Source of the DNA: Phytohabitans houttuyneae
Lineage (GTDB): Bacteria; Actinomycetota; Actinomycetes; Mycobacteriales; Micromonosporaceae
DNA length: 64,000 nucleotides
Direction of reading: 5' to 3'
Assembly: GCF_011764425.1 (NCBI RefSeq)
Contig: NZ_BLPF01000001.1
Coordinates: 1,293,001-1,357,000 of the forward strand
Part shown: positions 4,400-54,930 of the stretch, in pieces
How the letters are laid out: every line of letters starts with the position of its first letter
How positions within the stretch are numbered: position 1 is the first letter of the stretch
Made by a program: the position numbers and the translations under genes
The notes under the pieces: generated by a model
What the model was told of the DNA's origin: nothing
Seen by the model: only the letters and a program-made list of their open reading frames with translations
Databases searched by the model: none

Positions 4400-4623
4400 C
4401 CGCGCCGTCCCCCGCCGCCTCCCGCAGTGGTTACGCGGCGTTGATCAGCGGTAAAAGGTCCGGCCACCCTTCAAAGATCCAACCCAAAAAACCAGACGCG
4501 AGCTACCGCGATGCCCGTCGTGGTCCGGACCGCTGCTCCCGCGGCCTCACCCTCCGCGTCCGGCCAGCCCACCCCAGCAGCCGCGCCCCACAGATCTAGG
4601 CAACTTACGGCTGCCATGGCGCA

Positions 4624-5068
4624 CCTCGGTTTTTCGGAGTTGGGATTGCTTGCCGTGCGACAGCTTCCGGTGTCTCCCCAGCTCACGGTGTCCGTGCCGC
4701 AGCGGCCGCCTTAACGGGGCAAGGCATTGACCAGGCAAAGATGCAAGATCCACCGGTCCGATCTTCCCCCACCCGTGCTTCTGTAGATCTTCGGGCGGGA
4801 GTGCGCGAGTCCGCCGTCGTCGCGGTCTGTGACTGTCGATCAGGCGCCGGCGGTGTGAGCTTCGAAATCTTGGTGAGTTAGCGCGCCATTTCGACGCCAA
4901 CTTGCCAAGATCTGCCGGAGCAGCCTCCTGGGTTGAGCTGGGCGACCACGGAGGGTGAGGCGGCAACCGCGGGCACAGCTGCGGCTCACAGCTAAATCGA
5001 GTCGGACTCTAAGAAGGCTCACCCCGACCGCGAGAGGACTCCAGACGACGAAAACTCCGAAAGTCGAG
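4624..5068 (-). repeat. mosaic MITE-like element, copy 1 (modules A-B-C)
   Basis: Read on the minus strand, this copy starts with CTCGACTTTCGGAG (5055-5068) and ends with the related CTCGGTTTTTCGGAG (4624-4638), inverted. Between them are module A (about 4927-4995, containing GAGGGTGAGGCGGCAACC), module B (about 4790-4915, containing GCCAACTTGCCAAGATC) and module C (about 4640-4710, containing TGCGACAGCTTCCGGTGTC). The same order occurs at 33975-34267 and 41876-42175. No open frame is shared by the copies. It lies between convergent genes. Confidence 0.75.
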
Positions 5069-5200
5069 GCGCACCAACCCACCGAGATCTCGACTGTGAT
5101 GCCGCTTATGACCGACAGGTGGTCGCTGACGGTAACCGCGCGATCCTGGGGATGGACTCGCCTGCCCCCGGGAGCTCTCTAGCCAGGCCCGCACGCGCAC

Positions 5201-5740
5201 TCCGACGCTGGGCGCATTGCTGCGCCCAACTCCAGAGCCTCCCGCAGCCACACCCCACGCCAGACCGTGCGCGCCGGTTAGGCCAGGCACCCGCGGAGGG
5301 GTGAGGCCGCGAAAAAGCGCGGTTCCGGGCCCGAGGGCTGTCGCGCCACGCATGCCTCGATCGGCGAAACGGCCCGGCCGTCCGTGGCGAAAAGACCCAA
5401 ACCGCCCGCCCTGCTCAAGCCAAGCGGCAAGGCGTCACGCCCCGCAACGCCGCCAGCAGCCACGCCCGTAGGCGCCCCCGACGGTGGGCGCATTGCTGCG
5501 CCCAGCTCCAGAGCCTCCCGCAGCCACACCCCACTCCGGACCGTGCACGCCAGTTCGGCCGGGTCACCCCGCACGGGCCTTGATCGGCGGAACACCCTGG
5601 CTTTCCATAGCGCGAAAGACCCGAGCCGCCCGCCCTACATCAAGCCCCAGCGACAACGGCGTCAGCGCCCGCGGCCAACAAACGACCGGCTCCCGCGCAG
5701 CGCACCTCACCTGGGATCGGGCACGGCAGTCGGCCGGACC
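5201..5740 (+). repeat. two diverged tandem copies, unit about 275 bp
   Basis: The segment beginning TGGGCGCATTGCTGCGCCCA at 5209 recurs almost exactly at 5485, followed in both by CTCCAGAGCCTCCCGCAGCC. Similarity fades but continues: a GATCGGCG stretch and a GCCGCCCGCCCT stretch appear at matching offsets (about 5357/5581 and 5401/5627). This looks like an old tandem duplication in the non-coding gap. Each copy carries a perfect 8-bp hairpin with a TTGC loop (5209-5228 and 5485-5504), also found at 24105-24122 and, longer, at 42386-42411. Confidence 0.6.
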
Positions 5741-5859
5741 ACCCGCGGAGGGTGAGGCCGCGGGAGCAACGGTCTGGACCACGGCGGACATCGCGGTAGC
5801 CCAAAGCTCTTTGAACCGCGCCCTTCAGGGACGAAAGCCCCCGCGAGCGACGGACGGGC

Positions 5860-10365: not shown

Positions 10366-10938
10366 GTGGACGGTTCGCTTCGGCGGCGGGCACCGCGCGC
10401 GGACGCACAGGTCAACCGCACCCGCATCCTCGACGTGGCCGAGGACGTCTTCGGCGCCGGCGGCGAGGCCGCGTCGACCGAGGAGGTGGCGCGGCTGGCG
10501 GGCGTGGGCATCGCCACGGTCTTCCGCCACTTCCCGACGAAGGCCGCGCTGCTGGAGGCGGTGCTGGTCCGCCGCTTCACCCGCCTGCGCGAGCGCGCCG
10601 AGTCCCTGCGCGACGCCGAGGACCCGGGCCGCGCGTTCTTCGACTTCTTCGGCGCCCTGGTGGACGACGCCGCCACGAAGATCGCGATCGGCGACGCCCT
10701 GCTCGACGCCGGCGGCGACCGCGAGTCGGTGTCCGAGGCCGCGCAGGGCCTGCGCCGCGCGGTCGGCACCCTGCTCGACCGGGCCCAGCGCGCCGGCGCG
10801 GTCCGCGACGACGTCGAGCTGCCCGAGGTGTACGCCCTGCTCGTCGGCACCTCCCGCGCCGCCGCACACGCCGCCCTGGACGACGAGGTACGCGCCCGCG
10901 TGCTCGCCATCGTCTTCGACGGCCTCGCCCCCGCCTAG
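10366..10938 (+). CDS. TetR/AcrR-family regulator
   Basis: TetR-type repressor of about 190 residues. The N-terminal helix-turn-helix is clear (ILDVAEDVFGAGG, then STEEVARLAGVGIATVFRHFPTKAALLEAV), followed by an alpha-helical ligand domain rich in Ala and Leu. GTG at 10366 is preferred: GGAAGG lies 8 bases upstream, and the alternative GTG at 10333 sits inside the operator dyad. By position it should regulate itself and the divergent NTF2-like gene. The inducing ligand is unknown. Confidence 0.85.
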   Translation: MDGSLRRRAPRADAQVNRTRILDVAEDVFGAGGEAASTEEVARLAGVGIATVFRHFPTKAALLEAVLVRRFTRLRERAESLRDAEDPGRAFFDFFGALVDDAATKIAIGDALLDAGGDRESVSEAAQGLRRAVGTLLDRAQRAGAVRDDVELPEVYALLVGTSRAAAHAALDDEVRARVLAIVFDGLAPA

Positions 10939-11552
10939 CGACCGTCCACGACCACTCTTCGCGGTCAGGGTGAGCCCTTTTTGGGAACCTTCAATCCGAA
11001 CGAGATGTGAGCTACCGCGACGCCCGCGGTGGTCCGGACCGTCGCGCGGGGCCCCCGGGGAAACGTGGAGCGCAGCGGAGCGTTTTCTTGGGGTGCTTTC
11101 CCGCGGCCTCACCGTCCGCGGTCGCCAGGCTCAACCCCATGGGCGCGCTCCTTATCGACAGTCACGCACCGATGCGGCACGCTCCAGCAGATCTTGGCAA
11201 GTTAGCGTCGAAATAACGCGCAAACTCACCAAGATTTCGAAGCTCACACCGCCCGCGCCTGATCGACAGTCACAGACCGCGACGACGGTGCCGAACTGCG
11301 GGCGGACTCGCGCACTCCCGTCTCGAAAGATCTGCAGACCAGGATCTGCGGGAGCGGGGTGAGCTGGGCTACCGCGGAGGGTGAGGCCGCGGGAAAGCAC
11401 CCCAAGAAAACGCTCCGCTGCGCTCCACGTTTCCCCGGGGGCCCCGCGCGACGGTCCGGACCACCGCGGGCGTCGCGGTAGCTCGCGTCTCCTTGGGGTT
11501 GAATTCACTGAAGGCCGCGGAGGTGCCACCCACCCCGGCCCCGAAATGGTCT
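10939..11552. other. convergent non-coding gap with repeat element
   Basis: About 610 bases between the convergent TetR and kinase genes. Nearly all of it is the mosaic element copy at 10959-11520; the flanks show nothing else recognisable. Confidence 0.7.
10959..11520 (+). repeat. mosaic element copy 2, flanked by 112-bp inverted A modules
   Basis: The arms 11009-11120 and 11373-11484 are inverted copies of 112 bp differing at one base. Each contains GGTCCGGACC, a nested insert of about 52 bp (with GAAACGTGGAGCGCAGCGG) and GCGGCCTCACC. The 252-bp interior carries module B (about 11190-11330, with GATCTTGGCAAGTTAGCGTC). The left edge TCGCGGTCAGGG (10959-10970) matches both ends of the copy at 54427-54920. 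It is non-coding and lies between convergent genes. Confidence 0.8.
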
Positions 11553-12215
11553 CTAGCCCTGGTGCCGGGACGGGCTGGCTTCCAGGAGCGTCATGTCGAC
11601 GAGCAGGTCCGCGCGGCCGCGGGTGGCGGCGACGAGCGCCGCGTTGGGGTCGTCCACTGTGGAGACCCAGCTTGCCGCCTCGTCCGGGAGCTTGCCGAAG
11701 TGGACGTGGCGGGCGATCAGGCGTTCGCGGCGGGTGGGCTCGTCCAGCTCGACGAACCAGGTCTCGGTCAGCTCGGCGCGCACGTCCGGCCAGGGCGTGG
11801 CGTCGGCCAGCAGGTAGTTGCCCTCGGTGACCACGATGCGCGCGTCCGGGTCGACGCCGATCGCGCCGGCGATCGGCTGCTCCAGGTCGCGCGCGAAGCC
11901 CGGCGCCCACACCGTGCGCCGGCGGTCGGTGCGCAGGCGGCGTAGCAGGGCCAGGTAGCCGTCGCCGTCGAAGGTGTCGATCGCGCCCTTGCGCGCGCGC
12001 CGGCCGAGGCGTTCCAGCGCCACGTCGGCCAGGTGGAAGCCGTCCATCGGGACGAGCGCTGCCGCCACGCCCGCCGCGGCCAGGCCACCCACCAGGAGCT
12101 CGGCCAGCGTGGACTTGCCGGCCGCGGGGCAACCGGCGATGCCCAGGATCGCGCGCTCGCCACCGGGGCGGGCGCCGGCGAGGGCCGCGGCGCGGGCCAC
12201 CAGGTCGTCGAGCAC
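11553..12215 (-). CDS. nucleoside/nucleotide kinase family P-loop protein
   Basis: P-loop kinase of 220 residues in the uridine kinase/phosphoribulokinase-like group (often named nucleoside/nucleotide kinase family). Walker A is GCPAAGKSTLAELL near residue 27; a DGFHLAD substrate motif is near 58 and an acidic strand VVTEGNYLL near 125, followed by a lid with ARHVHFGK. It phosphorylates a small metabolite at the expense of ATP; fructose and pantothenate relatives exist, so the substrate is open. GTG at 12215 is the start. The lysoplasmalogenase gene upstream on the same strand ends 9 bases away. Confidence 0.8.
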   Translation of the reverse strand: MLDDLVARAAALAGARPGGERAILGIAGCPAAGKSTLAELLVGGLAAAGVAAALVPMDGFHLADVALERLGRRARKGAIDTFDGDGYLALLRRLRTDRRRTVWAPGFARDLEQPIAGAIGVDPDARIVVTEGNYLLADATPWPDVRAELTETWFVELDEPTRRERLIARHVHFGKLPDEAASWVSTVDDPNAALVAATRGRADLLVDMTLLEASPSRHQG

Positions 12216-19700: not shown

Positions 19701-22551
19701 AACCCGATGTTCTGGAAGCCGCCCGCGGTGTCGGTGGTGGCCTCCCGCACCACACCGGGGTCGCCGGTGCCCAGGCCGTCCGGCGCCTTGCCGGTCTCCG
19801 CGAAGTACTCGGCCTGCTTGCGCTTGGGCTGCAACTGCTCGATCGCCCGTCCGGTCAGCGCGTTGGAGCCGCCGGCACCGCCCTCGTCCGTGTACGAGGC
19901 CTCGAAGACAGCGAACACGTTCGCATCGGCGCCGTGGCCGGAGGCCAGCGACGTCTGCACGCTGCCCTCACAGCCGGTGTACGACTGCAGCGGGTGGGCG
20001 TGCTCGTCGTGCCCGAGGAAGTACTGCAGCGTCACCTTCGAGCAGTCGATCGTGCCGTCCTCGGGGTCGGTCACCTTGACCGTGTACTTGACCTGGTCGC
20101 CCCAGTCGAAGAAGCCGCCCTGCGGCGGGAACTCGATGGTCACGGTCGGCGCGGTGTTGCCGACGGTGATCGGCACGTTCGCGACGGCCGTGCGGCCCTT
20201 GGGGTTGGTCACGGTCAGCTGCGCGGTGTAGTTGCCGGCCGCCGTGTACTGGTGGGACGGGTTCTGCTGGTCCGAGGTGCCGCCGTCGCCGAACGTCCAC
20301 GCGTACGTGAGCGCGCCGCCGTCCGGGTCACGCGAACCCTCGCTGGAGAACTGCACGGTCAGCGGTGGCTGGCCACTCGTCGGCTCGGCCGAGGCGACCG
20401 CGATCGGGGCCCGGTCGGCCGCGATGTAGTCGATCCGGTAGACGCCGGAGTTGTCGTTGTTGCCACCGAAGCCGGTGCCCCACTCGATCATGTAGAGCGC
20501 GCCGTCCGGGCCGAACTCGAAGTCCATCGGCCGCAGGAACGTCATGCCGGTCAGCAGCTGGTTGATGTCCACAAGGGACTTGCCGTCGTCGTCGAGCTGG
20601 AACGTGTACATCTTGTTCTGGTTCCACTCGCCGAACATCGCCTTGCCGTCGAAGTACGCCGGCCACTTGCGGTCCGAGGCGAGCGCCGCGTCGTACCGGT
20701 ACACCGGGCCGCCCATCGGCGCGCCGCCGCCCCGATCTCGGGGAAGAGCGGGTTGCCGCTGTAGTCGTAGTCGACGGTGGCGGAGATCGCCGGCGGCAGG
20801 TTGGTCAGGCCGGTGTTGTTCGGCGAGTTGTTGACCGGCGCCGCGCAGTTGAACTTCGCGCCGCTCGGGCCGGACGGGAACGTGTAGTCGTTGTACGCGT
20901 AGTTCGCGCCGTGGCAGTACGGCCAGCCGTAGTTGCCGGGCGTGACCACGTTCCACTCCACCGTGCCCTCAGGCCCCCGGTCGGGGTTGGCAGCGCCGGC
21001 GTCGGGGCCGTAGTCGGCCACGTACAGCGTGTCGGTCTGCTTGTCGATGCCGATCCGGAACGGGTTCCGGAAGCCCATCGCGAAGATCTCCGGCCGGGTC
21101 TGCGCGGTGCCCTGCGGGAAGAGGTTGCCCGTCGGGATCGTGTACGTCCCGTCGTCCTCCGGGTGGATCCGGATCACCTTGCCGCGCAGGTCGTTCGTGT
21201 TGCCCGACGTGCGCTGCGCGTCGTAGTCCTGGCGGCCGGCCCGCTCGTCGATCGGGGTGAAGGAGTTGGACTCGAACGGGTTGGTGTTGTCACCCGTGGC
21301 CAGGTAGAGGTTGCCGGCGCTGTCGAAGACCATGCTGCCGCCCGCGTGGCAGCAGGTGTTGCGCTGGGTGGTCACCTCGATGACGACCTTCTCGGTGTTC
21401 AACGCGATCGAGTCGCCCGACACCGTGAAGCGGGCCACCCGGTTGCGGGCGATCCCGTCGTTGGGTGCGTAGTAGAGGTACACCCAGCCGTTTGTGGCGA
21501 AGTCCGGGTCGAGCCGGATGCCGATGAGACCGTCCTCGTTGCCGGTGAAGACGTCGAGGTCGACGGCGGTGACCGTGGTGCCGGTGTCCGGCTTCACGAT
21601 CTGCACCCGGCCGTCGCGCTCGATGTAGAAGACCCGGCCGTCCGGCGCGATGTCCAGCTCCATCGGGTTCTGGGTGTTGCTGTCCAGCGTCACCTTCTCG
21701 AAGCTGCTGGTCTGCGAGGCAGCGCAGTCGGCGTCGACCGCGCCGGCCGCCGTCTGGATGCCGCCGAGCAGGTGCGCCAGGAAGTTGGCCTCCGAGTACG
21801 ACTCGATGGTGTGGCCGCTGCCCGTGTACCAGGAGCGCCCGCCGTCGTAGTCGTGGCACCACGCGGTCGGGTGGTCGGCACCCATGGCGCCCGAGCCGGG
21901 CGTGTAGGTGCGCTCGTCCAGGCTGGCCAGCACGTGCACGTCGGCGCGCGGGTTGGTCTGGAAGTTGTACCACTCGTCGAAGCGGCTCCACTTGGCCGGC
22001 AGGTGCGCCGTGGAGGGGTGCGCCGGGTCCTCGACCTTGATGGTCGCGGTCTGGTTGGCCGGGTGCGCGGAGAAGTACGCGCCGACCAGGTCCCCGTACC
22101 AGGCCCACTGGTACTCGGTGTCGGAGGCGGCGTGGATGCCGGCGTAGCCGCCACCAGCGCGGATGTACCGCTCGAACGCGGCCTGCTGGTCGGCGTTGAG
22201 GACGTCGCCGGTGGTCGAGAGCCAGACCACCGCCGCGTACTTGTCGAGGTTGGCGTCGGTGAACGCGCCGGCGTCCTCGGTCGCGTCGACCGTGAAGCCG
22301 TTGTCTGCGCCGAGCTGCTCGATCGCGGCGATGCCCGCGGGGATCGAGTCGTGGCGGAAGCCCGCGGTCTTGGAGAAGACCAGGACGGAGAACGGCTCGG
22401 CCGCGGCGGCTTGCTGCGCCACTGGTGCGGCCTGGACCGGTGCCGGCCCCGCGACCAGCGCGGACGCGCCGGCGAGGAGGGTACTTGCGGCGAGAAACAA
22501 AGTGCGTCTGACAGCGCCGCGTATACCGCGGCGTCGGCGAACTGCTGGCAC
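16724..22551 (-). pseudogene. giant secreted ThuA + sugar dehydrogenase multidomain protein, frameshifted
   Basis: The reconstructed protein has about 1,942 residues. It has a signal peptide (1-42), then a ThuA domain (about 50-270, FSKTAGFRHDSIPAGI, GIHAASDTEY) and a six-bladed glucose/sorbosone dehydrogenase domain (about 285-690, CCHAGGSMVFDSAGNLYLATGD, FAMGFRNPFRIG). PKD (715-800), CBM6-like (905-1050) and second PKD (1055-1140) domains follow, then two DUF1349 concanavalin-like repeats, three Ig-like repeats and a C-terminal FIMAH domain. The frame breaks at the C-run 20730-20733; one added G gives FPEIGGGGAPMGGPVYRYD. Probably an extracellular polysaccharide- or sugar-oxidising enzyme. 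A terminator follows at 16681-16714. Confidence 0.85.
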
Positions 22552-32680: not shown

Positions 32681-32738
32681 AAGTCCACACCCTAAAGTGC
32701 GCGGGCAAGTGGGCCCGGCCTGTGAAACGATCGCCTTC

Positions 32739-33370
32739 ATGCCGATCGACCAGCAGCTGCTAGTGGCCTTCACGGTCACCACACTCGTGGCGATGGTGAC
32801 CCCCGGCCCCGACATGCTCTTCGTGCTGGGCTGCGGGATGCGCGGCGGCCCCCGCGCCGGCCTGCTAGCCACGGCCGGGGTCGCCACAAGCGAGGCGGTG
32901 CACATCGTGGTGGCGGCGATCGGCCTGGCCGCACTCTTCGCCGCGGTTCCGGTCGCCTTCACGGTGGTACGCGTCCTCGGCGCCGCCTACCTCGTCTACC
33001 TGGGCGTGCAGATCATCCGCCGCCGCGGCGGCGGCCCCGGCGACATGCCCGTGCTCGGCGGCGGGATGTCCGGCCGCAGGGCCTACCTCAACGGCCTGGT
33101 GACCAACCTGCTCAACCCGAAGATGGTGACCTTCACGATCGCGTTCCTGCCCCAGTTCATCGACCCGGCGCTGGGGCAGGTGTGGCTCCAGTTCGCGATC
33201 CTGGGCGCCATCCTGGTCACGCTGGAGTTCATAGTGGACGGCACGGTCGGCGTGCTGGCCGGGCGCATCGGCGGCTGGCTACGCCGCCGCCACGCCGCCC
33301 GCCGCCGCGTCGACGTAGCGACGGGGGCATTTTCATCGGTCTCGGTGTTCGACTGGCCGTCGACCGCTGA
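32739..33370 (+). CDS. LysE-family exporter (frameshift near its end)
   Basis: Amino-acid/metabolite exporter of the LysE/RhtB family with six membrane segments. Hallmarks: MVTPGPDMLFVLGCGMRGGPRAGLLATAGV and the NGLVTNLLNPKMVTFTIAFLPQFI loop. The frame as given runs on to 33935 with a low-complexity tail repeating ARPIQ. One extra G in the run 33323-33327 gives VATGGIFIGLGVRLAVDR and a stop at 33368-33370. That is a 210-residue protein with the standard family C-terminus. I therefore end the gene at 33370 and treat the long tail as read-through into non-coding repeats. Divergent from the GlnH-like gene. Confidence 0.85.
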
Positions 33371-33470
33371 CGGCGCCCGGCGTCACTCGCCTGGCCTCGC
33401 CCGGCCCGCTCTCCCGGCCCAGCCCCGCCAGCCCGCTCGCCGCCAGGCCCGCGGGCCCCACCCGGTTCAG

Positions 33471-33567
33471 CCCCGCCCGATCCAGGCCCGCCCGATCCAG
33501 GCCCGCCCGATCCAGGCCCGCCCGATCCAGGCCCGCCCGATCCAGGCCCGCCCGATCCAGGCCCGCC
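33471..33567 (+). repeat. 15-bp tandem repeat array
   Basis: Unit TCCAGGCCCGCCCGA, five exact copies from 33481 to 33555 with partial copies on both sides. The spacing is exact, without spacers. It lies in non-coding, C-rich DNA after the corrected LysE stop. Confidence 0.9.
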
Positions 33568-33974
33568 AGCCAGGTCGCCCGCCCCGGGCCAGCCTTGGTC
33601 GCCCCGCCCGGGCCAGCCTTGGTTGCCCCACCCAGCCCAGCCTTGGTTGCCCCATTAGGCCCGCTCCTTCCGGCCCGCCGGCCACGCCCCACCTGGTCCG
33701 CCGCCCTCGCCCGGCCCAGCCTGGTCGCCCGCCAGCCCGGTCGCCCCGCGAGGCCCGCCCGGTTTCAGCGTGGTCGCCCACCAGGCCCGGCCGACTCGCT
33801 TTCGTCCGGCCCAGCCCGGTCGCCCCGCCCGACCCGGCCCAGCCCGACCCGGCCAGCCTGACCCAGCCCGGTTGCCCCACCAGGCGCGCCCGACCCCACC
33901 TGGCCCGTTGCGGTGATCATGGTTGGCGACGGTGACCATGGTTTGCGCAGCAGAATTCGGGCGATTTGTCACTG

Positions 33975-34267
33975 CTCGACTTTCGGAGTTTCGTCGTCTG
34001 ATGAGAGCTGCCGCTGTACCCGCGGTGCCGCCTCACCCTCCGCGGTCGCCTGCTCAACCCAGGAGCCCGCTCCGGCAGATCTTGGCAAGTTAGCGTCGAA
34101 ATAACGCGCAAACTCACCAAGATTCGAAGCTCACACCGCCGGCACCTGATCGACAGTCACAGACCGCGACGGCGGCGCCGGACTGCGGGCGGACTCGCGC
34201 GCAGACGCCGTGCTGGGAGGACACCGAAGCTGTCGCACGGGAAGGAACCCCGACTCCGAAAGTCGAG
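33975..34267 (+). repeat. mosaic MITE-like element, copy 3 (A-B-C, perfect 14-bp terminal inverted repeats)
   Basis: Bounded by CTCGACTTTCGGAG (33975-33988) and its exact inverse CTCCGAAAGTCGAG (34254-34267). Inside, in order: a short module A (about 34005-34050, GCCTCACCCTCCGCGGTCGC), module B (about 34075-34200, GATCTTGGCAAGTTAGCGTC and CTGATCGACAGTCACAGACC) and module C (about 34205-34265, CGAAGCTGTCGCACGGG). Best-defined copy in the window. No coding potential. Confidence 0.8.
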
Positions 34268-37545: not shown

Positions 37546-37553
37546 CGCCACTC

Positions 37554-40454
37554 CTAAGAAGGCAGGGTCCACTGCTGGTTGGCCGCGCCGCTGCAGGTCC
37601 ACAGGTGTACGACCGTGTTGTCCGCCGAACCGGTGCCGGAGATGGTCAGGCACTTGCTGGAGTTCGCGTTGACGAGCGTGCCGTTGGCCTGCGGTACCCA
37701 GTTCTGCGCGCCGGTGCCGTTGCAGGTCCAGAGCTGGATCTTCGTGCCGTCCGCCGTACCCGCGCCGGAGACATCCAGGCACTTGCCGAGCGCGCGCAGC
37801 GTCTGCGCGCTGCGGGTCCACGTCTGCGCCGCGCTGTTGTTGCAGGTCAAGATCTGGATTTGGGTACCGTCGGCGGTGGCGCCGCCGCGTACGTCCAGGC
37901 ACTTGCCGCCGAGGCCCGTGATCCGTGAGCCGCCGGTGCTGCCGCCCGTCACGAACGTGAACGAGTCGACGTCGAACAGCGCGCCCGCCCCGCCGGCGAA
38001 GGTCAGGTACAGCGTGGTGGTACCGGCCGGCGGGTTGCTGATCGTGCCGCTGACGTTTGCGAACGTGTCCCAACTCCCCGTCGACGTCACCGTGGCGGAG
38101 CCGAGCACCGTGCCCGTCGGCGAGCCGGCCCGCACCTGCAACGTGCCCCCGGCGCCGGCGGAGGAAACCCGCGCGGTGAACGAGGTGGCGTTGCTGATCC
38201 GGTACGGGTCGAACGCGATCCAGTCGCCGTTTTCGATGCTGCCGACCGTGTACCCGCCCTCGGCCGTGGCCTTGGCGTGGGTACCGATGCCGGACATCGT
38301 CTTGAAGTGCTCCGCCTGCCGCTTGCGCGGCTGGAGGACGTGCTGGGTGTGCGTGGTGATCCCGCCGTTGTCGGTGTACTCGGCGTCGAAGATCCCGAAG
38401 ATGTTGGCGGCGTCGTCGTGCTCGCCGTCGACCGGGATCGTGATCGAGCCGGTGCAGCCGGTCTGCGAGGTGATCTGGTGGCCATGGCTGTCGTGGCCGA
38501 GGACGTAGGTCATGCGCACCCGCGCGCAGTTGATCGTGCCGTCCTCGGTGTCGGCCACCGAGATCGTGAACGGCACCGTGTCGCCGAACGAGAAGAGCTG
38601 CCCGTTCGCCGGCGTGGAGATGGTGACCCGCGGCGCGGTGTTGCCCACGGAGATTGTCACGCTGTCCGAGCCGGTGGCGCCCTGCGGGTCACGGACGGTG
38701 AGCGTCGCCGTGTACGTGCCGTTCGTGCTGTAGGTCTTGCTCGGGTTCGCGGCCGTCGAGGTCGTGCCGTCGCCGAAGGCCCACGAGTACGTGATCGCGC
38801 TGCCGTCCGGGTCGGACGAGCCCGCCGACGAGAACTGCACGGTCAGCGGCGCCGCGCCCGAGGTGGGGTTGGCGGTGGCGTTCGCGATCGGCGCGCGGTT
38901 GCCGCCGGTACCCACGTAGTCGTAGCGGTACAGCGCCGAGTTGGCGTCGCCGCCGAACCAGCCGGTGCCGTAGTCGAGGACGTAGAGGGCGCCGTCCGGG
39001 CCGAACGCGGAGTCCATGATCTGGGTACCGGTCCACGGGAACGTCTCGATCCCCTGTATCGCGCCGGTGGAGCTCACGTGGATCGGCTTGATCCAGCGCC
39101 GCCCGAACTCGGTGGCGAAGAACTGCCCGTCGAACCCGGAGGGGAACTTGGTCGTGGACGGGTTGGCCGCGTCGTACCGGTAGACAGGTCCGGCCATCGG
39201 CGACTCGGAGCCACCGCCGAACTCGGGGGGCGTGCCGGCGTCACCCGCGTACCGGATCCAGGCCGCGCGGGCGGCCGGGAGCGTGCCCTGCCCGGTGTTG
39301 CGGAACGAGTTGTTGGTCGGGCCGCCGGTGCAGTTGAACTTGGGCCCCGTCGCGTTTGTCGCGAAGTTCCACTCGTTGTACGTCTCGGTGGACGTGTTCG
39401 TGCCGGTGCAGTAGGGCCAGCCGTAGTTGCCCGCCGAGGTGACCCGGTTGAACTCGACCTGGCCGCTCGGCCCGCGCGTGGCGCTCGTCGTGCCGGCGTC
39501 CGGACCGTAGTCGCCGACGTAGACCACGCCGGTCGCCTTGTCCACGCCGATCCGGAACGGGTTGCGGAAGCCCATCGCGTAGATCTCGGGACGCGTGTTG
39601 GGCGTGCCGGGCGCGAAGAGGTTTCCGGCCGGGATCGAGTACGAGCCGTTGGCGTTCACCTTGATCCGCAGGAGCTTGCCGCGCAGGTCGTTGGTGTTGC
39701 CCGCGGACCGCTGCGCGTCGAAGACCGGGTTGCGCTCGGTCCGCTCGTCAAGCGGCGCGTAGCCGGCCGAGTCGAACGGGTTGCTGTCGTCCCCCGTGGA
39801 CAGGTAGAGGTTGCCCGCCGCGTCGAAGTCGATGTCGCCGCCCACGTGGCAGCACATGCCGCGGTCGGCGGCGACGTCCAGGATGTTCACCTGGCTCGCC
39901 ATGTTGATCGTGTTGTTGCTGTTCAGCGTGAACCGCGACAGCCGGTTGACCCCCTGCCACGTCGCCCACGTCGCGGCGGTACCGCTCGCGGGCGCGTCGC
40001 CGGCCGGGGTGGACAGCGGCGGCGCGTAGTACAGATAGATGAACCGGTTGGTGGCGAAGCCGGGGTCGACGCCGACGCCCTGCAGCCCTTCCTCGTCGTG
40101 CGTGTACACGGGGATGGTGCCGATCACGCTGGTGTTGCCGGCCGCGTCGGTGCGCCGGACGGTGCCGTTGCGGGCGGTGTGGATGACCGAGCGGTCCGGG
40201 AGCACGGCGAGCGTCATGGGCTCGCCGACCTCACCGACGCCGCTGGCCAGCGTCACGCGCTGGAAGTCCGCCGCGTTGATCGGGTGCGCCTGCGCCGGGG
40301 CCGCGGTGGTCGCGACGGAGATCGCCGCGCCGGCGGCGACGAGAAGAGCGGCGGAGCCGGCCGCCTTGAGTCTGGTGGCCGTGCGCGCGCGGCGGTGCCT
40401 CCGGGCGCGCGGGATCGACGGCGCGGGGCGGCGCCGGAAGTCCAGGATGGACAT
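37554..40454 (-). CDS. secreted glucose/sorbosone dehydrogenase-PKD-CBM6-ricin protein
   Basis: Secreted PQQ-type sugar dehydrogenase of 966 residues. A twin-Arg-rich leader and signal peptide (to about 56) precede the six-bladed glucose/sorbosone dehydrogenase domain (about 60-480, EEGLQGVGVDPGFA, CCHVGGDIDFDAAGNLYLSTGD, YAMGFRNPFRIG). A PKD domain (520-600), an Ig-like segment, a CBM6-like module (710-835) and a ricin-B lectin (845-965) follow. It oxidises a sugar outside the cell while bound to polysaccharide; the substrate is unknown. Its core parallels the middle of the giant protein at 16.7-22.6 kb. The ThuA-DUF1080 gene follows after 8 bases. GAGGG lies 11 bases upstream of the ATG at 40454. 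Confidence 0.88.
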   Translation of the reverse strand: MSILDFRRRPAPSIPRARRHRRARTATRLKAAGSAALLVAAGAAISVATTAAPAQAHPINAADFQRVTLASGVGEVGEPMTLAVLPDRSVIHTARNGTVRRTDAAGNTSVIGTIPVYTHDEEGLQGVGVDPGFATNRFIYLYYAPPLSTPAGDAPASGTAATWATWQGVNRLSRFTLNSNNTINMASQVNILDVAADRGMCCHVGGDIDFDAAGNLYLSTGDDSNPFDSAGYAPLDERTERNPVFDAQRSAGNTNDLRGKLLRIKVNANGSYSIPAGNLFAPGTPNTRPEIYAMGFRNPFRIGVDKATGVVYVGDYGPDAGTTSATRGPSGQVEFNRVTSAGNYGWPYCTGTNTSTETYNEWNFATNATGPKFNCTGGPTNNSFRNTGQGTLPAARAAWIRYAGDAGTPPEFGGGSESPMAGPVYRYDAANPSTTKFPSGFDGQFFATEFGRRWIKPIHVSSTGAIQGIETFPWTGTQIMDSAFGPDGALYVLDYGTGWFGGDANSALYRYDYVGTGGNRAPIANATANPTSGAAPLTVQFSSAGSSDPDGSAITYSWAFGDGTTSTAANPSKTYSTNGTYTATLTVRDPQGATGSDSVTISVGNTAPRVTISTPANGQLFSFGDTVPFTISVADTEDGTINCARVRMTYVLGHDSHGHQITSQTGCTGSITIPVDGEHDDAANIFGIFDAEYTDNGGITTHTQHVLQPRKRQAEHFKTMSGIGTHAKATAEGGYTVGSIENGDWIAFDPYRISNATSFTARVSSAGAGGTLQVRAGSPTGTVLGSATVTSTGSWDTFANVSGTISNPPAGTTTLYLTFAGGAGALFDVDSFTFVTGGSTGGSRITGLGGKCLDVRGGATADGTQIQILTCNNSAAQTWTRSAQTLRALGKCLDVSGAGTADGTKIQLWTCNGTGAQNWVPQANGTLVNANSSKCLTISGTGSADNTVVHLWTCSGAANQQWTLPS

Positions 40455-41309: not shown

Positions 41310-41858
41310 TCCGCGGTCGCCCAGCAGGGCGCAGGCGAGGTTCGCGAAGGCTGGGAAGTGATCGGCTTTGCGGTCGTAGCGACCAGCAGCCGGATCAGGA
41401 GCTGGGAGTCGTGGGTGTCGCGGCGGAGATCAGGCAGGCCAGCGGCACAGCGCGGCGGTCACACAGTACGTGGATCTTGCTGCCGGATTTGCCACGGTCG
41501 ACCGGGTTTGGCCCATTCAGATCCCTCTTTTGCGCCCGGACCGCGATCGAGTCCACGATCGCCCTGGACCAGTCAATCTCGCTGACCAAGCCCAACCTAT
41601 GCAGAAACTGCTGATACAACTGTTCCCACAGCCCAGCGGCCGTCCACTCAGTGAACCGGCGGTGCGCCGTCGAACGGGAGATCCCGAACACCCGCGCAGG
41701 CAGCTTCCACCACGAACAGCCCGCCGCCACCCTGCCGACGCGGCGCCTTGACCGGGATCAACGGCTGCGCGACTTGCCAGAAGCATCCGGCGCCCAGGTA
41801 CGGACCATCTCCTCCACCGTGGAAGGAAGATCATGCCGCAGGTCACACCACTATCCAT
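41310..41858 (-). pseudogene. IS5-family transposase remnant
   Basis: Degenerate IS5-type (DDE) transposase. Recognisable pieces in order: IPVKAPRRQGGG-like start in one frame; SRSTAHRRFTEWTAAGLWEQLYQ; IDWSRAIVDSIAVRAQKRDLNGPNPVDRGKSGSKIHVLCDRRAVPLA (first catalytic Asp region). After a frameshift comes THDSQLLIRL, and after an internal deletion the C-terminal RYDRKADHFPAFANLACALLGDRGA with a stop near 41310. The middle DDE part is missing and at least two frames are used, so it is inactive. The stop codon lies inside a module A sequence, linking this insertion sequence to the mosaic repeats. Confidence 0.8.
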
Positions 41859-41875: not shown

Positions 41876-42175
41876 ATGTGAGCTATCGCCATGCTCGCGG
41901 TTTGCCGCCTCACCTTCCGCAGTCGCCCGGCTCAGGCCAGGAGCCAGTTCCGGCAGATCTTGGCAAGTTAGCGTCGAAATAGCGCGCTAACTCACCAAGA
42001 TCTCGAAGCTCACACCGCCCGCACCTGATCGACAGTCACAGACCGCGACGACGGCGCCGAACTGCGGGCGGACTCGCCTTACCCCGTAAAGCCGGCCACT
42101 GCGGCGCGGACACCGTGAGGTGGGAAGACACCGGAAGCTGTCGCACGGGGAAGCAATCCAACTCCGAAAGTCGAG
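41876..42175 (+). repeat. mosaic MITE-like element, copy 4 (A-B-C)
   Basis: Module A (about 41877-41935, with TGCCGCCTCACCTTCCGC), module B (about 41953-42085, with GATCTTGGCAAGTTAGCGTC) and module C (about 42109-42175, with GGAAGCTGTCGCACGGGG), ending in CTCCGAAAGTCGAG at 42162-42175, the same terminus as copy 3. The left end abuts the transposase remnant, preceded by an imperfect palindrome at 41856-41876. Non-coding. Confidence 0.75.
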
Positions 42176-42532
42176 TTGCCCCTGGAAGGGCCAAAAGAGT
42201 CCACGATCGTCACGGATCAACTCGATCATGGGATGAGAACCGATTGGACCGGGCCTGCTGGGTGGTGAGGTGGTCGCGGCGGTCCGCGCCGAAGACGCGT
42301 TCCTTGATCACTGTCAAAGTAGCCAGTCATCCCGCTTGCACCTGGTGCATCGCACGCCCACGAGCACCCACCCGACGAGCGGTAGAGCTGGGCGCATTAG
42401 TGCGCCCAGCTTGAGAGGCTCCCGCGACCGCGGAGGGTGAGGCCGCGGGAGCAACGGTCCGGACCACCGCGGACATCGCGGTAGCTCAAAATCTGGTGAA
42501 AGCCCCCCGACGCCCGCGACGAAAAGCGGCGG
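42176..42532. other. non-coding spacer with hairpin and inverted module A
   Basis: 42176-42385 shows nothing I recognise. AGCTGGGCGCA (42386-42396) and TGCGCCCAGCT (42401-42411) form a perfect 11-bp hairpin with loop TTAG. 42424-42490 is module A in inverse orientation (GAGGGTGAGGCCGCGGGAGC, GGTCCGGACC). Both stand downstream of the minus-strand gene ending at 42533 and may act in transcript termination. Confidence 0.55.
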
Positions 42533-51182: not shown

Positions 51183-51755
51183 ATGATCAGCGACCGCCCG
51201 CGAGCCGCCACGGCGAGCTGGACGGTGCTGCACACCGGGTACGGCGAGCGCGAAGTGGCCGCCACCGTCGGCTTCGTCCGGGACGGCGACACGCTCGTCG
51301 TGACCGACCCGGGCATGGTGCGGGACCGCCGGCTCATCCTCGACCCGCTCCGCGACCTCGGCGTGGCGCCCGAGGACGTGACGGACGTCGTGTTCAGCCA
51401 CCACCACCCCGACCACACGCTCAACGCGGCGCTGTTTCCGGCCGCCCGCTTCCACGACCACTGGGCGATCTACGCCGGGGACCGGTGGGAGTGGCGGGAC
51501 GCCGAGGGGTACGAGCTCACGCCGGCCGTCAAGCTGATCCGCACGCCCGGCCACACGCCGGAGGACATCACGACCCTGGTCGGCACCGCGGACGGCGTGG
51601 TCGCCTTCACCCATCTGTGGAACACCGCCGACTCGGCCGGCGACCGCCACGCCACGGACCTCACCGCCCTGCACGCCGGCCGGCGGCGCGTCCTGGGCGT
51701 GGCCGGCATCCTGGTGCCGGGCCACGGCCCGGCTTTCCAGATTGGACAGTCATGA
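51183..51755 (+). CDS. MBL-fold metallo-hydrolase
   Basis: Metallo-beta-lactamase-fold hydrolase of 190 residues. The metal site is HHHPDH in VFSHHHPDHTLNAALFP; further ligands are the His in TPGHTPEDIT, an Asp in WNTADSAGDR and the late His in PGHGPAFQ. Such small members hydrolyse thioesters, lactones or act on persulfides; the substrate here is unknown. Overlaps the NIPSNAP gene start by 4 bases (ATGA). Divergent from the IclR gene. Confidence 0.88.
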   Translation: MISDRPRAATASWTVLHTGYGEREVAATVGFVRDGDTLVVTDPGMVRDRRLILDPLRDLGVAPEDVTDVVFSHHHPDHTLNAALFPAARFHDHWAIYAGDRWEWRDAEGYELTPAVKLIRTPGHTPEDITTLVGTADGVVAFTHLWNTADSAGDRHATDLTALHAGRRRVLGVAGILVPGHGPAFQIGQS

Positions 51756-52378
51756 TCTACGAGTTGCGCCAGTACACCCTCTGGCCCGGCGAGCGGGAGA
51801 CGCTGATCGAGCTGTTCGACCGCGAGTTCGTGGAGAGCCAGGAGGCCGCCGGAATACGGGTCGACGGCCAGTTCCTCGACGAGGACCGCCCGGACCACTT
51901 CGTGTGGGTGCGCAGCTTCCCCGACATGGGGCGGCGCACCGCCGCGCTGACCGCCTTCTACGGCGGCCCGGCGTGGCAGGCCCACCGCGACGCCGCCAAC
52001 GCCACGATGGTCGACTCGGACGACGTGCTGCTGCTCAAGCCCGCCGGCCCGGTGTGGGAGCTGCCCGCCGAGCGCCGTCCACAAGGGACACCGGCGGTCC
52101 TCACCGCGTCGATCGCGCACCTGCCGTCGCCCGTGACCCAGGACTTCCGCGACTTCTTCGCGGCCGAGGTGGCACCGCTGGCGCCGGTCATCGCCCGCTT
52201 CGAAACCGAGTACGCCGAGAACACCTTCCCCGACCTGCCCGTGCGGACCGGCGAGCACGTCTGGGTCTGGTTTACCCGCGGCGACGTCTCACCGGGCGTG
52301 CCGGCGCTGGAGAAGTGGCTCACCGGGCCCGTGCAGACCCTCCGCCTGACCCCGACCGCCCGCTCACTGCTGCGCTAG
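51752..52378 (+). CDS. NIPSNAP-family protein
   Basis: NIPSNAP (dimeric alpha-beta barrel) protein of 208 residues, with two ferredoxin-like repeats: IYELRQYTLWPGERETLIELF at the start and a second half from about 105 (AVLTASIAHLPSPVTQDF). Family members are poorly understood; some bind small molecules or serve as stress proteins. Translationally coupled to the MBL hydrolase. Its stop overlaps the end of the convergent HxlR gene by 4 bases. Confidence 0.85.
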   Translation: MIYELRQYTLWPGERETLIELFDREFVESQEAAGIRVDGQFLDEDRPDHFVWVRSFPDMGRRTAALTAFYGGPAWQAHRDAANATMVDSDDVLLLKPAGPVWELPAERRPQGTPAVLTASIAHLPSPVTQDFRDFFAAEVAPLAPVIARFETEYAENTFPDLPVRTGEHVWVWFTRGDVSPGVPALEKWLTGPVQTLRLTPTARSLLR

Positions 52379-52728
52379 GACGCGGTCGCGGGGCGGCGGG
52401 TGGCGGTGATGCGGGCCATGTGGCGGTCGCCCCAGTCGCCCAGCGGCAGAAGGGCCTTGTTGAGCGACTCGCCGAAGTCGGTCAGCGAGTACTCCACGCG
52501 GGGCGGGACCTCGCGGTAGATCTCGCGGTGGACGAGGCCGTCCGACTCCATCTCGCGCAGCTGCTGGATGAGCACCTTTTCGCTCACGCCCGGCAGCGAC
52601 CGGCGCAGCTCGGCGAAGCGGTGCACGCCCGCGTGCAGCTCCCACAGGATCAGCGCCTTCCACTTGCCGCCGACCAGGTCGACGGCCGCATCGAGACCGC
52701 AGCTGTACGGCCCGCGCTCCTTCGCCAC
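52375..52728 (-). CDS. HxlR-family winged-helix regulator
   Basis: HxlR regulator of 117 residues. The hallmark cysteine is in GPYSCGLDAAVDLVGGKWKALILWEL, followed by RFAELRRSLPGVSEKVLIQQLREMESDGLV and the wing PPRVEYSLTDFGESL. The N-terminal Cys suggests redox or electrophile sensing. GTG at 52728 is chosen for the GGAGGT 5 bases upstream; the longer form from 52755 runs through the operator. Divergent from the imine-reductase-like gene, which it probably represses through the dyad at 52729-52746. Confidence 0.85.
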   Translation of the reverse strand: MAKERGPYSCGLDAAVDLVGGKWKALILWELHAGVHRFAELRRSLPGVSEKVLIQQLREMESDGLVHREIYREVPPRVEYSLTDFGESLNKALLPLGDWGDRHMARITATRRPATAS

Positions 52729-52746
52729 ACTTACCTCCAGGTAAGT
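52729..52746. promoter_or_regulatory. HxlR operator, 18-bp perfect dyad
   Basis: ACTTACCT and AGGTAAGT flank CC; a second dyad AAGTAC (52743-52748)/GTACTT (52764-52769) overlaps it. The TACTTAC/GTAAGTA pattern matches known HxlR/YodB-type boxes. Covers the regulator's ribosome site and the divergent promoter. Confidence 0.6.
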
Positions 52747-52802
52747 ACCCCACAAATTTGTCAGTACTTGCGGATTCTACCGCCACGACGAAGCCTGGGT
52801 GG

Positions 52803-53675
52803 GTGACCAAAAACCTCACTCCCGTAACCGTGGTCGGGCTCGGCGACATGGGGCGCGCGCTCGCGGCGGCCTTCCTCGACGCCGGCCATCCGACCACCGT
52901 CTGGAACCGCACCCCGCACCGCGCCGACGACCTCGTCCGCCGGGGCGCCACCCGCGCGGCCACCGCCGCCGACGCGGTGCGGGCGAGCCGCGTCGTCGTG
53001 GTCTGCCTGCTGGACTACCCCACGGTCCGCGAGGTGCTCGCCCCAGCCGGTGGCGAGTTGGCCGGCCGCACGGTCGTCAACCTCACCAACGGCACCCCCG
53101 CACAGGCCGCCGAGGCCGGCGACTGGGTGCGCGGGCTCGGCGCCGACTACCTCGACGGCGGCATCATGGCGATCCCGCCGATGATCGGCCAGCCCGGCGC
53201 GCTGATCCTCTACAGTGGATCGAAGGGTGCCTACGAGGCCGAGCGCGAGCTGCTGGAGCGGCTGGGCGGAAGCCGCTTCCTCGGCACCGACCCGGGCGCG
53301 GCCGCGCTGCACGACCTGGCGCTGCTCGCCGGCATGTACGGGCTCTTCGGCGGCTTCCTCCACGCGGTGGCCATGGTGGACGGTCCGGCGCGCGGGTTCA
53401 CCGACGAGCTGCTGGTGCCGTGGCTCACCGCGATGACCGGGGTGCTGCCCGAGCTGGCCGACCAGATCGACGCGGGGAAGTACACGGCGCAGAGCGCGAA
53501 CCTCGCCATGCAGGCGGTGAGCCTCGCGAACATCACCACGGCCACGGTGGACCGCGGCGTCGACCCCGCGCTCCTCGCGCCACTGCGCGCGCTCGCCGAC
53601 CGCCGCGTCTCCGAGGGCAGCGGCGGCGACGACATCTCCACGCTTGTCGAGGGCCTCAGGGTGGGTGCCCGATGA
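52803..53675 (+). CDS. NAD(P)-binding beta-hydroxyacid dehydrogenase / imine reductase-like
   Basis: 6-phosphogluconate dehydrogenase-superfamily oxidoreductase of 290 residues. Rossmann motif [17 protein letters not shown] at the N-terminus, [12 protein letters not shown] for the NADP phosphate (Arg), [10 protein letters not shown], and a helical C-terminal domain with [26 protein letters not shown]. This layout fits the imine reductase group used on small imines. GTG 52803 gives the family length; a TTG at 52758 lies in the operator. Its stop overlaps the SDR start (ATGA). Confidence 0.85.
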
Positions 53676-54421
53676 CACGGTTCGAAGGGGTGCGGGCGGT
53701 CGTGACCGGCGGTACCCACGGCATGGGCCTGGGTGTCGCGGAGGCGCTGGCCGCCGGCGGCGCTCAGCTGGTGGTCACCGGGCGCGACGAGGCGAGGCTT
53801 GACGCGGCCCGCCGCTCGCTCGGCGGTGCCCACCTGGTGCGCAGCGACGCCGCCAGCCTGGCCGACATCGACGCGCTCCGCGAGACGGTGGCGCGGGCGC
53901 TCGGCCGGATCGACTTCCTCTTCGTCAACGCGGGGGTGGCGACGCTGGAGCCGTTCGAGGCGGTGAGCGAGGCGTCGTACGACCGGATGTTCGCCGTCAA
54001 CGCCAAGGGCGCGTTCTTCACGGTGCAACGGCTCGCGCCGTTGCTGCGCGACGGCGGGTCCATCGTCTTAACCTCCTCGGTGGCGGACGAGGGCGGCGAG
54101 CCGGGCATGACCGTCTACTCAGGATCGAAGGCGGCGCTGCGCTCGTTCGCCTCTGGCTTCGCGGCCGAGCTGATGCCGCGCGGCATCCGGGTCAACGTGG
54201 TCAGCCCCGGCTTCATCGACACGCCGACGATGGGCGTGGCGTCGGCGACGCAGGAGGAACGGGAGGCGTTCCGCAAAATCGGCGACGAGGTGACGCCCAT
54301 GCGCCGCCACGGCTCGGTCGCCGAGGTGGTGTCGGCGGTGCTGTTCCTCGCCTTCGACGCCACGTACACGACCGGCGCCAAGCTCCGCGTCAGCGGCGGC
54401 CTGGGCGAAGGCATCACCTAG
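53672..54421 (+). CDS. SDR-family oxidoreductase
   Basis: Classical short-chain dehydrogenase/reductase of 249 residues. Cofactor motif [17 protein letters not shown] (TGxxxGxG), NAG in [13 protein letters not shown], catalytic Ser in [12 protein letters not shown], and YxxxK as [14 protein letters not shown]; the end [15 protein letters not shown] is typical. Acts on an unknown alcohol/ketone with NAD(P)H. Coupled to the imine-reductase-like gene; both under the divergent HxlR regulator. A mosaic repeat element begins 5 bases after its stop. Confidence 0.92.
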
Positions 54422-54930
54422 AGACTTTCGCGGTCAGGGTGAGCTCTTCTGGAAAGTTCAACTCGAACGAGATGTGAGCTGCCGCGATGTCCGCGGTGGT
54501 CCGGACCGTTGCGCGGGGCCCCCGGGGAAACGTGGAGCGCAGCGGAGCGTTTTCTTGGGGTGCGTTCCCGCGGCCTCACCCTGCGCGGTCGCCAGGCTCA
54601 ACCCAAGGGCCTGCTCCGCATCGACCGTCACGGACCGCCGCGCTGAGTCCGCCCACGATGCGGCGCCGTCCTGGAGGGCTTACTACCGTCAGTGACCATC
54701 CGTCGGACGCAAGCGGCGCCGCAGCCGAGACCTTGGTGAGTTGGCGCGTTATTTCGACGCTAACTTGCCAAGATCTGCCGAAGCGGGGCTCCTGGGTTGA
54801 GCTCGGCGACCGCGGAGGGTGAGGCCGCGGGAGCAACGGTCCGGACCACGGCGGACATCGCGGCAGCTCACATCTATCGTTTTGGGTTGGATCTTTTGAA
54901 GGCCGCCCCTGACCGCGAGAGACTCCCGCG
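54422..54930. other. convergent non-coding gap with repeat element
   Basis: About 509 bases between the convergent SDR and GlxA genes, almost exactly filled by the mosaic element at 54427-54920. Nothing else recognised. Confidence 0.7.
54427..54920 (+). repeat. mosaic element copy 5, inverted A modules, 12-bp ends
   Basis: Ends are TCGCGGTCAGGG (54428-54439) and its inverse CCCTGACCGCGA (54908-54919). Module A runs forward at about 54474-54600 with the nested insert of about 52 bp (54511-54565) and inverted at about 54808-54870 without it. A partial module B (about 54730-54780) lies between. The element spans nearly the whole gap between two convergent genes, like copies 1-3. Confidence 0.8.

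What the first reader, a model, noticed from the sequence alone, without database searches (positions are those of the whole stretch)
4400..54930. A family of mosaic, MITE-like non-coding elements fills the convergent gene gaps
Five elements (4624-5068, 10959-11520, 33975-34267, 41876-42175, 54427-54920) are assembled from the same modules A, B and C. Seen directly: B contains GATCTTGGCAAGTTAGCGTC in several copies, and C contains the CGACAGCTTCCGG stretch or its inverse. Three copies have the order A-B-C; copy 3 has perfect 14-bp terminal inverted repeats CTCGACTTTCGGAG. Four of the five sit between convergent gene pairs. I know no named element with this structure. Inferred: non-autonomous transposons, or repeats tolerated or used at transcript ends.
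Basis: partly seen in the sequence, partly recalled or inferred. Interest (0 to 1): 0.78.

Follow-up and report, generated by a model that had tools for sequence, protein, structure and literature searches.

The report
Nested mini-transposons at shared stop codons
The repeats between genes in this soil actinobacterium look like layers of small gene-less transposons: one kind sits at a four-letter CTAG stop signal that it rebuilds on both sides, so neighbouring genes stay intact, and it carries a hairpin in which other transposons land.

Summary
The five elements share modules; a 23-base piece of module B occurs 117 times in the 11.3 Mb Phytohabitans genome and in none of 60 relatives, five congeners included. 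It is not one family but two MITE types nested in each other. Type M2 (copies 2, 5) has the ends of an IS630-family IS found in the same genome and sits at CTAG. Insertion at TA by an element running G...C rebuilds CTAG on both sides. In 1.2 Mb, stops facing repeat-filled gaps are CTAG in 49 of 145 cases against 58 of 854 elsewhere; other TAG stops show no excess. Convergent pairs with two separate CTAG stops: 7 of 59 with repeats, 0 of 129 without. The CTAG test was not significant in two congeners. Type M1 (copies 1, 3; copy 4 lacks one end) has the ends of an IS701-family IS and mostly sits in the loop of palindrome B (10 of 16), with an exact 6-bp duplication in 7 of 16. All four IS30 copies interrupt the same loop. 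No RAYT gene was found. Mobility is inferred, no clean empty site in relatives was obtained. New variant of a known kind.

The parts
10935..11556 (.). Copy 2: M2-type (IS630-like) MITE, foldback, from the CTAG stop of the TetR gene (10935-10938) to the CTAG stop of the minus-strand gene 11553-12215 (11553-11556)
   Evidence: Right border reads CTAGAGACCATTTCGGGGCCGGGGTGGG from the stop; left border has about 16 bp of unmatched sequence between CTAG and TTCGCGGTCAGGGTGAG. Arms 10990-11137 and 11356-11503 93% complementary; fold z -25 and -22.
54418..54934 (.). Copy 5: M2-type (IS630-like) MITE from the CTAG stop of the SDR gene (54418-54421) to the CTAG stop of the AraC-type gene (54931-54934)
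   Evidence: Left border CTAGAGACTTTCGCGGTCAGGGTGAGC; right border has about 5 extra bp before CTAG. Fold of 54422-54930: -358 kcal/mol, z -17.4.
4625..5068 (.). Copy 1: M1-type (IS701-like) MITE, 444 bp, 6-bp duplication GCGCAC at 4619-4624 and 5069-5074
   Evidence: The left end is imperfect (CTCGGTTTTTCGGAG). Rejoined flanks score 17 against palindrome B; 99th percentile of random own sequence is 11.
4592..5090 (.). B-like palindrome split by copy 1 (left arm 4592-4624, right arm 5069-5090)
   Evidence: AGATCTAGGCAACTTACGG... and ...AACCCACCGAGATCT
33975..34267 (.). Copy 3: M1-type MITE, 293 bp, perfect 14-bp ends, TCACTG/TCACAG (5 of 6) on the two sides
   Evidence: Its site is not palindrome B (score 10, not above the null).
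41876..42175 (.). Copy 4: M1-type MITE without its left end; right end CTCCGAAAGTCGAG at 42162-42175
4866..4914 (.). Palindrome B inside copy 1
11189..11237 (.). Palindrome B inside copy 2
   Evidence: Single-strand DNA fold z -5.2
34078..34124 (.). Palindrome B inside copy 3
   Evidence: Fold of 34076-34124 z -4.8
41957..42003 (.). Palindrome B inside copy 4
   Evidence: Fold of 41957-42005 z -5.9
54729..54777 (.). Palindrome B inside copy 5
   Evidence: Fold z -4.6
4490..4560 (-). REP1-type module in the block around copy 1
   Evidence: I11 and D13
5739..5803 (+). Solo REP1 module
   Evidence: D8
42424..42488 (+). Solo REP1 module
   Evidence: D8
52375..52378 (.). One CTAG shared as stop by the convergent genes 51752-52378 (+) and 52375-52728 (-), with no element: what an unoccupied M2 site would look like

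Best explanation
The mosaics are two kinds of non-autonomous transposons nested in each other. (1) M2 (435-622 bp in four examples) has the ends of an IS630-family IS and sits at CTAG. In this 72% GC genome CTAG is rare and about a third of all CTAGs are stop codons. Because the element begins with G and ends with C, C-TA-[GAGACC...GGTCTC]-TA-G carries CTAG at both borders. A gene that ends in CTAG therefore keeps its stop, and one CTAG shared by two convergent genes is split into two intact stops. This, together with loss of insertions that hit promoters or coding sequence, places M2 between convergent genes. (2) M1 (269-445 bp in 15 examples) has the ends of an IS701-family IS and inserts, with a 6-bp duplication, mostly into the loop of palindrome B. 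M2 and M1 both carry B, so B is a repeated landing pad; an IS30 uses the same loop. Shown: end sequences, positions, duplications, copy numbers, CTAG-stop statistics. Inferred: that the IS630 and IS701 transposases move the MITEs, that shared CTAGs were the ancestral sites, and that selection removed the rest.
For: M2 ends: CTAGAGACCTTTCGCGGTCAGGGTGAG with up to 3 mismatches at 21 places in the own genome, 20 in congener G004, 4 in P. suffuscus, 0 in the other 38 genomes; the same ends bound an IS630-type IS in G004 and in the own genome (L153 11079-12253). CTAG stops facing repeat-filled gaps: 49 of 145 against 58 of 854 (odds ratio 7.0, p 4.7e-17); other TAG stops 0.95, p 0.9; in the 400 kb around the window 13 of 31 against 17 of 314, p 8e-8. 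Two separate CTAG stops in convergent pairs: 7 of 59 with repeats, 0 of 129 without, p 2.3e-4; five repeat-free pairs share one CTAG. M1 ends match those of a 1502-bp IS with an IS701-type transposase (NF049999, 291 bits, cut-off 170) lying in a B palindrome with GCGTCG on both sides. Of 16 own insertions with paired ends (15 MITEs and this IS) 7 have 6 of 6, 3 have 5 of 6; rejoined flanks resemble B in 10 of 16. In P. suffuscus the four IS701 copies whose ends I found lie in a cognate palindrome. IS30: 4 of 4 own copies in the B loop with AAT (ATT) on both sides.
Against: 31 of the 49 CTAG stops facing repeat-filled gaps are not directly followed by a recognisable M2 end. At 13 M2 ends with a clean CTAG only 4 are called stops (hand count from the 38 rows), no more than the 102 of 337 that CTAG availability gives. 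The CTAG test in two congeners is not significant (G004 2 of 17 against 23 of 275, p 0.65; P. suffuscus 5 of 30 against 17 of 272, p 0.054). 6 of 16 M1 sites show 2 or fewer matching duplication bases, and 3 of 4 P. suffuscus sites show no 6-bp duplication either. Published IS701 members duplicate 4 bp (PMC2266710). M2 ends differ from the own IS630 ends at 3 of 27 positions. The window's M2 copies have one imperfect border each. CTAG availability alone predicts 39% convergent, observed 63%. Genes come from my own unbenchmarked caller.
Confidence: 0.78

Rival explanations
1. The repeats are REP/BIME-type palindromes spread by a RAYT (Y1 tyrosine transposase) and kept at gene ends.
For: Palindromic, extragenic, alternating orientations, high copy number; REPs in other bacteria are IS targets too (PMC1525189, passages).
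Against: No Y1_Tnp (PF01797) match in the own genome, while 5 of 14 control genomes ring. M2 and M1 have IS630- and IS701-like ends, which REPs do not need. The small REP1 and REP2 modules, which also occur alone, could still have had an origin of their own.
Confidence: 0.07
2. Target choice plays no part: MITEs insert anywhere and only survive between convergent genes, because nothing there is damaged.
For: RUP, BOX, SPRITE and IS elements of pneumococcus are also over-represented between convergent genes, explained there by weaker selection (PMC3049150, passages). Module B is nearly absent from divergent gaps and genes (of 56 sites 2 divergent, 1 genic).
Against: Selection alone does not single out CTAG among TAG stops (7.0 against 0.95) and does not give two separate CTAG stops only where repeats lie (7 of 59 against 0 of 129).
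Confidence: 0.12
3. The elements are host-domesticated devices at transcript ends (bidirectional terminators, RNA stabilisers or supercoiling sinks), placed by selection for that function.
For: Copies 2 and 5 fill the gap from stop to stop and fold into one giant hairpin on either strand (z -14 to -25).
Against: Copies 1, 3 and 4 fold only weakly better than shuffles (z -1.0 to -5.2); no T-tailed terminator in the copy 5 gap; module B absent from 5 of 5 congeners; three congeners lack the element behind the orthologue of gene 11553-12215.
Confidence: 0.1

Closest known systems
RUP of Streptococcus pneumoniae (MITE with ends like IS630-Spn1; PMC3049150, passages read)
   Same: Small, no transposase, ends like an IS630-family IS of the same genome, over-represented between convergent genes.
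   Different: RUP is about 107 bp and simple; M2 is a 435-622 bp foldback that carries a landing palindrome and REP-like modules and sits at CTAG stops. No statement on stop codons seen for RUP in the passages.
IS630 (preference for TA in CTAG; Tenzen and Ohtsubo 1991, title seen in the reference list of PMC2170065)
   Same: M2 ends border CTAG on both sides in the clean copies.
   Different: M2 has no transposase; the link to stop codons comes from this genome.
REP sequences as IS targets (PMC1525189, passages read: IS3, IS110, IS4, IS256, IS5)
   Same: A multicopy extragenic palindrome is the preferred site of several IS families.
   Different: Here IS701 and IS30, and the palindrome itself travels inside MITEs.
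IS30 hot spots (PMC9333248, passages read)
   Same: Nearly palindromic target, short duplication.
   Different: The hot spot is a repeat present in more than a hundred copies.
BOX elements of S. pneumoniae (PMC3049150, passages read)
   Same: Modular, mosaic, non-coding repeats.
   Different: BOX modules are ordered boxA-boxB-boxC; here the mosaic comes from nested insertions with different ends and targets.
MITEPsy1 of Pseudomonas syringae (PMC3189936, passages read)
   Same: A MITE that inserts at CTAG (or YTAA) with the 4 bases duplicated.
   Different: Ends resemble ISPsy2, thought to be IS5-like, 100 bp; no link to stop codons seen in the passages.

Membership tests
IS630-derived MITE (M2) | Inverted ends shared with an IS630-family IS of the same genome | tested here: met
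   24 of 27 positions with C2:1433487 and C2:1444227, which are ends of IS630-type copies (each ORF scores below the whole-protein cut-off of 100 bits).
IS630-derived MITE (M2) | No transposase gene of its own | tested here: met
   Six ORFs overlapping copies 1, 2, 4 and 5 or the block around copy 1: no Pfam family above its cut-off.
IS630-derived MITE (M2) | TA duplicated at the insertion site | tested here: inconclusive
   CTAG at both borders in C1:26025-26459 and copies 2 and 5, but without an empty allele the duplication itself is not shown.
IS630-derived MITE (M2) | Mobilised by the IS630 transposase | not testable with these tools
   Needs a transposition assay.
IS701-derived MITE (M1) and its IS | Transposase of the IS701 family | tested here: met
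   454 aa, NF049999 291 bits, cut-off 170; the older model NF033540 gives 92.7, below its cut-off of 150.
IS701-derived MITE (M1) and its IS | 4-bp target duplication, as published for IS701 (PMC2266710) | tested here: not met
   6-bp exact in 7 of 16 own insertions and 1 of 4 in P. suffuscus. So M1 works like an IS701 MITE, but this branch is not a typical member.
IS701-derived MITE (M1) and its IS | MITE ends match the IS ends | tested here: met
   14-bp end with 2 and 1 mismatches to CTCGACTTTCGGAG.
IS30 family (third user of B) | IS30 transposase | tested here: met
   NF033563 257 bits, cut-off 80.
IS30 family (third user of B) | Insertion in a palindromic site with a short (2-3 bp) duplication (length recalled) | tested here: met
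   4 of 4 copies in the B loop with AAT or ATT on both sides.
REP/BIME with RAYT | Y1 tyrosine transposase in the genome | tested here: not met
   PF01797: 0 matches in the own genome; 5 of 14 control genomes ring.

The most novel reading that the evidence does not exclude
A two-step safe-harbour system. A CTAG-targeted MITE splits one stop codon shared by two convergent genes into two intact ones, so its entry is silent for both proteins. It brings along a palindrome that serves as landing pad for other transposons (IS701, its MITE, IS30), and the IS701 MITE carries a fresh copy of that pad, so each insertion replaces the target it uses. The genome's transposons would thereby steer each other away from genes.
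Probability: 0.4. Interest if true: 0.75.

Novelty: new variant of a known kind. Interest (0 to 1): 0.6.

Why it matters
Enrichment of small repeats between convergent genes is commonly put down to weak selection. Here a simple additional cause can be tested: a rare target tetranucleotide that is often a stop codon and that the element rebuilds on both sides. The multicopy palindrome used by an IS701, its MITE and an IS30 shows how transposons can build a non-coding refuge for each other. The 6-bp duplication and palindrome targeting of this IS701 branch are open to a direct transposition test.

Tried and rejected
Rejected: one single element family (two kinds of ends with different targets). 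RAYT-spread REPs. An 8-bp duplication for M1: I first read 8 bp next to a 13-bp end (note); a 14-bp end with 6 bp fits better (note). Amplification of B mainly by M1: the internal context that I took for M1 also occurs in M2 (copy 2). Of 86 intact B palindromes in the sample 67 have that context and 35 of these 67 have an IS701-type end within 330 bp on at least one side, so the idea was dropped. Empty sites in congeners: the gene right of copy 2 has orthologues in 3 of 5 congeners with no element in the stretch read behind the stop, but gene order differs, so there is no clean empty site. For the two genes beside copy 5 I read only the hit lists, which showed multi-member families and no clear orthologue (best foreign hits 62% and 68%), and did not inspect those loci. 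Rfam: no family for the repeats at gathering score. The CTAG test in two congeners was not significant. One search gave 0 through an error in my search window and was repeated. For the M1 table I chose 15 of the 28 rows by hand (dropped: other pairings of the same end, a duplicate row, the false left end of window copy 4) and added window copy 1 by hand.

Literature: nine of ten searches and passages of six papers. In these listings and passages I saw no description of these repeats or of CTAG-stop insertion of IS630 MITEs. The library holds open-licence papers only.
Full report
What was checked. The five elements of the finding share sequence modules in direct and inverted register. A 23-base piece of module B occurs 117 times (59 forward, 58 reverse) in the 11,342,817-base genome with at most 3 mismatches; the reversed control gives 0. 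In 60 relatives, five of the same genus, it occurs 0 times. Short, diverged pieces of copy 3, nearly all from its REP-like part, do match in four of five congeners. Congener G002 has the contig length and the hit coordinates of Phytohabitans suffuscus NBRC 105367, so the window comes from Phytohabitans (Micromonosporaceae).

Two kinds of ends. I fetched about 1.4 Mb of the own genome by regions: 400 kb around the window, the rest mostly chosen because it holds module B or one of the ends. M2 has the ends CTAGAGACCTTTCGCGGTCAGGGTGAG: with up to 3 mismatches 21 places in the own genome, 20 in G004, 4 in P. suffuscus, 0 in the other 38 genomes of that call.

Partner of M2. In G004 such ends bound an IS of about 1175 bp whose two ORFs carry HTH_33/HTH_29 and DDE_3 domains and match the IS630 model with 94 and 86 bits, each half below the whole-protein cut-off of 100. 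The own genome has a full-length copy (L153 11079-12253) and one interrupted copy; the ORFs of the full one give 83 and 85 bits. IS630 prefers TA in CTAG (Tenzen and Ohtsubo 1991; I saw only the title, in the reference list of PMC2170065; passages of that paper state TA duplication for the family).

CTAG and stop codons. In 1.2 Mb of own sequence with 1026 genes called by my own script there are 337 CTAGs, against about 3018 expected from base composition; 102 are stop codons, 70 lie inside coding sequence, 165 elsewhere between genes. Stop codons that face a gap with repeats are CTAG in 49 of 145 cases, those facing other gaps in 58 of 854 (odds ratio 7.0, p 4.7e-17). Other TAG stops show no excess (0.95, p 0.9). 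In the contiguous 400 kb around the window it is 13 of 31 against 17 of 314 (p 8e-8); in gaps of 150 bp or more of the whole sample 47 of 131 against 10 of 195. Convergent pairs with two separate CTAG stops number 7 of 59 with repeats and 0 of 129 without (p 2.3e-4); five repeat-free pairs share one single CTAG. One of these is in the window at 52375-52378, and copies 2 and 5 are two of the seven split pairs. The reading: insertion at TA with duplication, by an element that runs G...C, turns one CTAG into two and leaves both genes with TAG. For copy 2 the own protein ends four residues later than its G003 orthologue (read), so the stop lies near the ordinary gene end. Against the reading: only 18 of the 49 CTAG stops are directly followed by a recognisable M2 end (3 of 58 elsewhere); the test is not significant in two congeners; 4 of 13 clean M2 ends at a called stop (hand count from the 38 rows) is no more than CTAG availability predicts; and copies 2 and 5 each have one imperfect border.

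Convergent gaps. Module B has 56 sites in the sample, in 51 distinct gaps: 32 convergent, 18 tandem, 1 divergent; convergent gaps hold 26.5% of gap bases. REP1: 42, 22 and 2 of 66. In the 400 kb around the window, B: 5, 2 and 0 of 7. Available non-coding CTAGs would give 39% convergent and 22% divergent; observed are 63% and 2%. So CTAG targeting explains part of the bias, and loss of insertions near promoters probably the rest (inference).

Partner and target of M1. One full IS (own C1:3511444-3512945, 1502 bp) has M1-like ends and a 454-aa transposase of the IS701 type (NF049999, 291 bits, cut-off 170). It lies in the loop of a B palindrome between REP1 modules, with an M2 end on the left, and has GCGTCG on both sides; the right M2 end is not recognisable. 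It is the only copy in the own genome; congener G002 has homologues at 68-82% identity, the other congeners none. Of 16 own insertions with paired ends, this IS included, 7 have an exact 6-bp duplication, 3 have 5 of 6, 6 have 2 or fewer; rejoined flanks score above the 99th percentile of random own sequence against B in 10 of 16. Copy 3 is among the other six. In P. suffuscus the four copies whose ends I found lie in a cognate palindrome; a fifth, broken one showed no ends in the stretch held. The P. suffuscus consensus came from these sites, but their fold z-scores (-3.6 to -7.2) do not depend on it; 1 of the 4 has an exact 6-bp duplication. Published IS701 members duplicate 4 bp (PMC2266710, passages), so this branch differs.

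Third user of B. An IS30-family IS (333 aa, NF033563, 257 bits, cut-off 80) has four copies in the own genome and none in five congeners at E 1e-30. All four interrupt B at the same point with AAT (or ATT, read from the other strand) on both sides, in both orientations. IS30 is known for nearly palindromic hot spots (PMC9333248, passages), and REPs are known targets of five other IS families (PMC1525189, passages).

How the window copies read. Copies 2 and 5 are M2 elements that reach from stop to stop and fold into giant hairpins (z -14 to -25). Copy 1 is M1 (4625-5068, GCGCAC on both sides) inside a B-like palindrome of a larger repeat block. Copy 3 is M1 at another site. Copy 4 is M1 without its left end, beside an IS5-type remnant. 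Six ORFs overlapping the elements show no Pfam family above cut-off. B is carried by both MITE types; of 86 intact B palindromes in the sample, 37 have an IS701-type end within 330 bp on at least one side, 13 on both.

Function. Nothing tested shows a host function. The foldbacks could end or protect transcripts of both genes, but no T-tailed terminator was found in the copy 5 gap, and three congeners have no element behind the orthologue of the gene right of copy 2. I take them as transposons with a well-tolerated address.

Verdict. Each ingredient has a known relative; the stop-splitting address and the transposon-borne landing pad are new to me and were not seen in my literature searches, which cover open-licence papers only.

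Noticed in passing
window 60295-60365 (+): Guanidine-III riboswitch, the only Rfam match at gathering score in the window (39.5 bits).
   Followed up: no
window 41395-41730 (-): Remnant of an IS5-type transposase (DUF4096, 34.6 bits) between two REP2-like pieces, left of copy 4.
   Followed up: partly
window 33442-33582: 15-bp tandem repeat in the tail of a LysE ORF (32373-33935 +); the minus strand would read LDRAG pentapeptides. No Pfam match for the minus-strand ORFs.
   Followed up: partly
window 20273-22203 and 36802-39883: Two paralogous coding stretches, 73-78% alike (D3, D4, D10-D12, D19).
   Followed up: no
window 11044-11100 and 54511-54566: A GC-rich stretch of about 54 bp (GCGGGGCCCCCGGGGAAACGTGGAGCGCAGCGGAGCGTTTTCTTGGGGTGC) sits inside the REP1 module of copies 2 and 5 and is absent from other REP1 copies; perhaps a further small insertion.
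   Followed up: no
own genome C1:5156245-5156267 and C2:2641034-2641056: Copies of the module B piece lie at or near contig ends (contig lengths 5156269 and 2641586), so these repeats may have broken the assembly.
   Followed up: no
L153 1487-3926 (own C2): An IS630 copy interrupted by further sequence, probably another IS.
   Followed up: no
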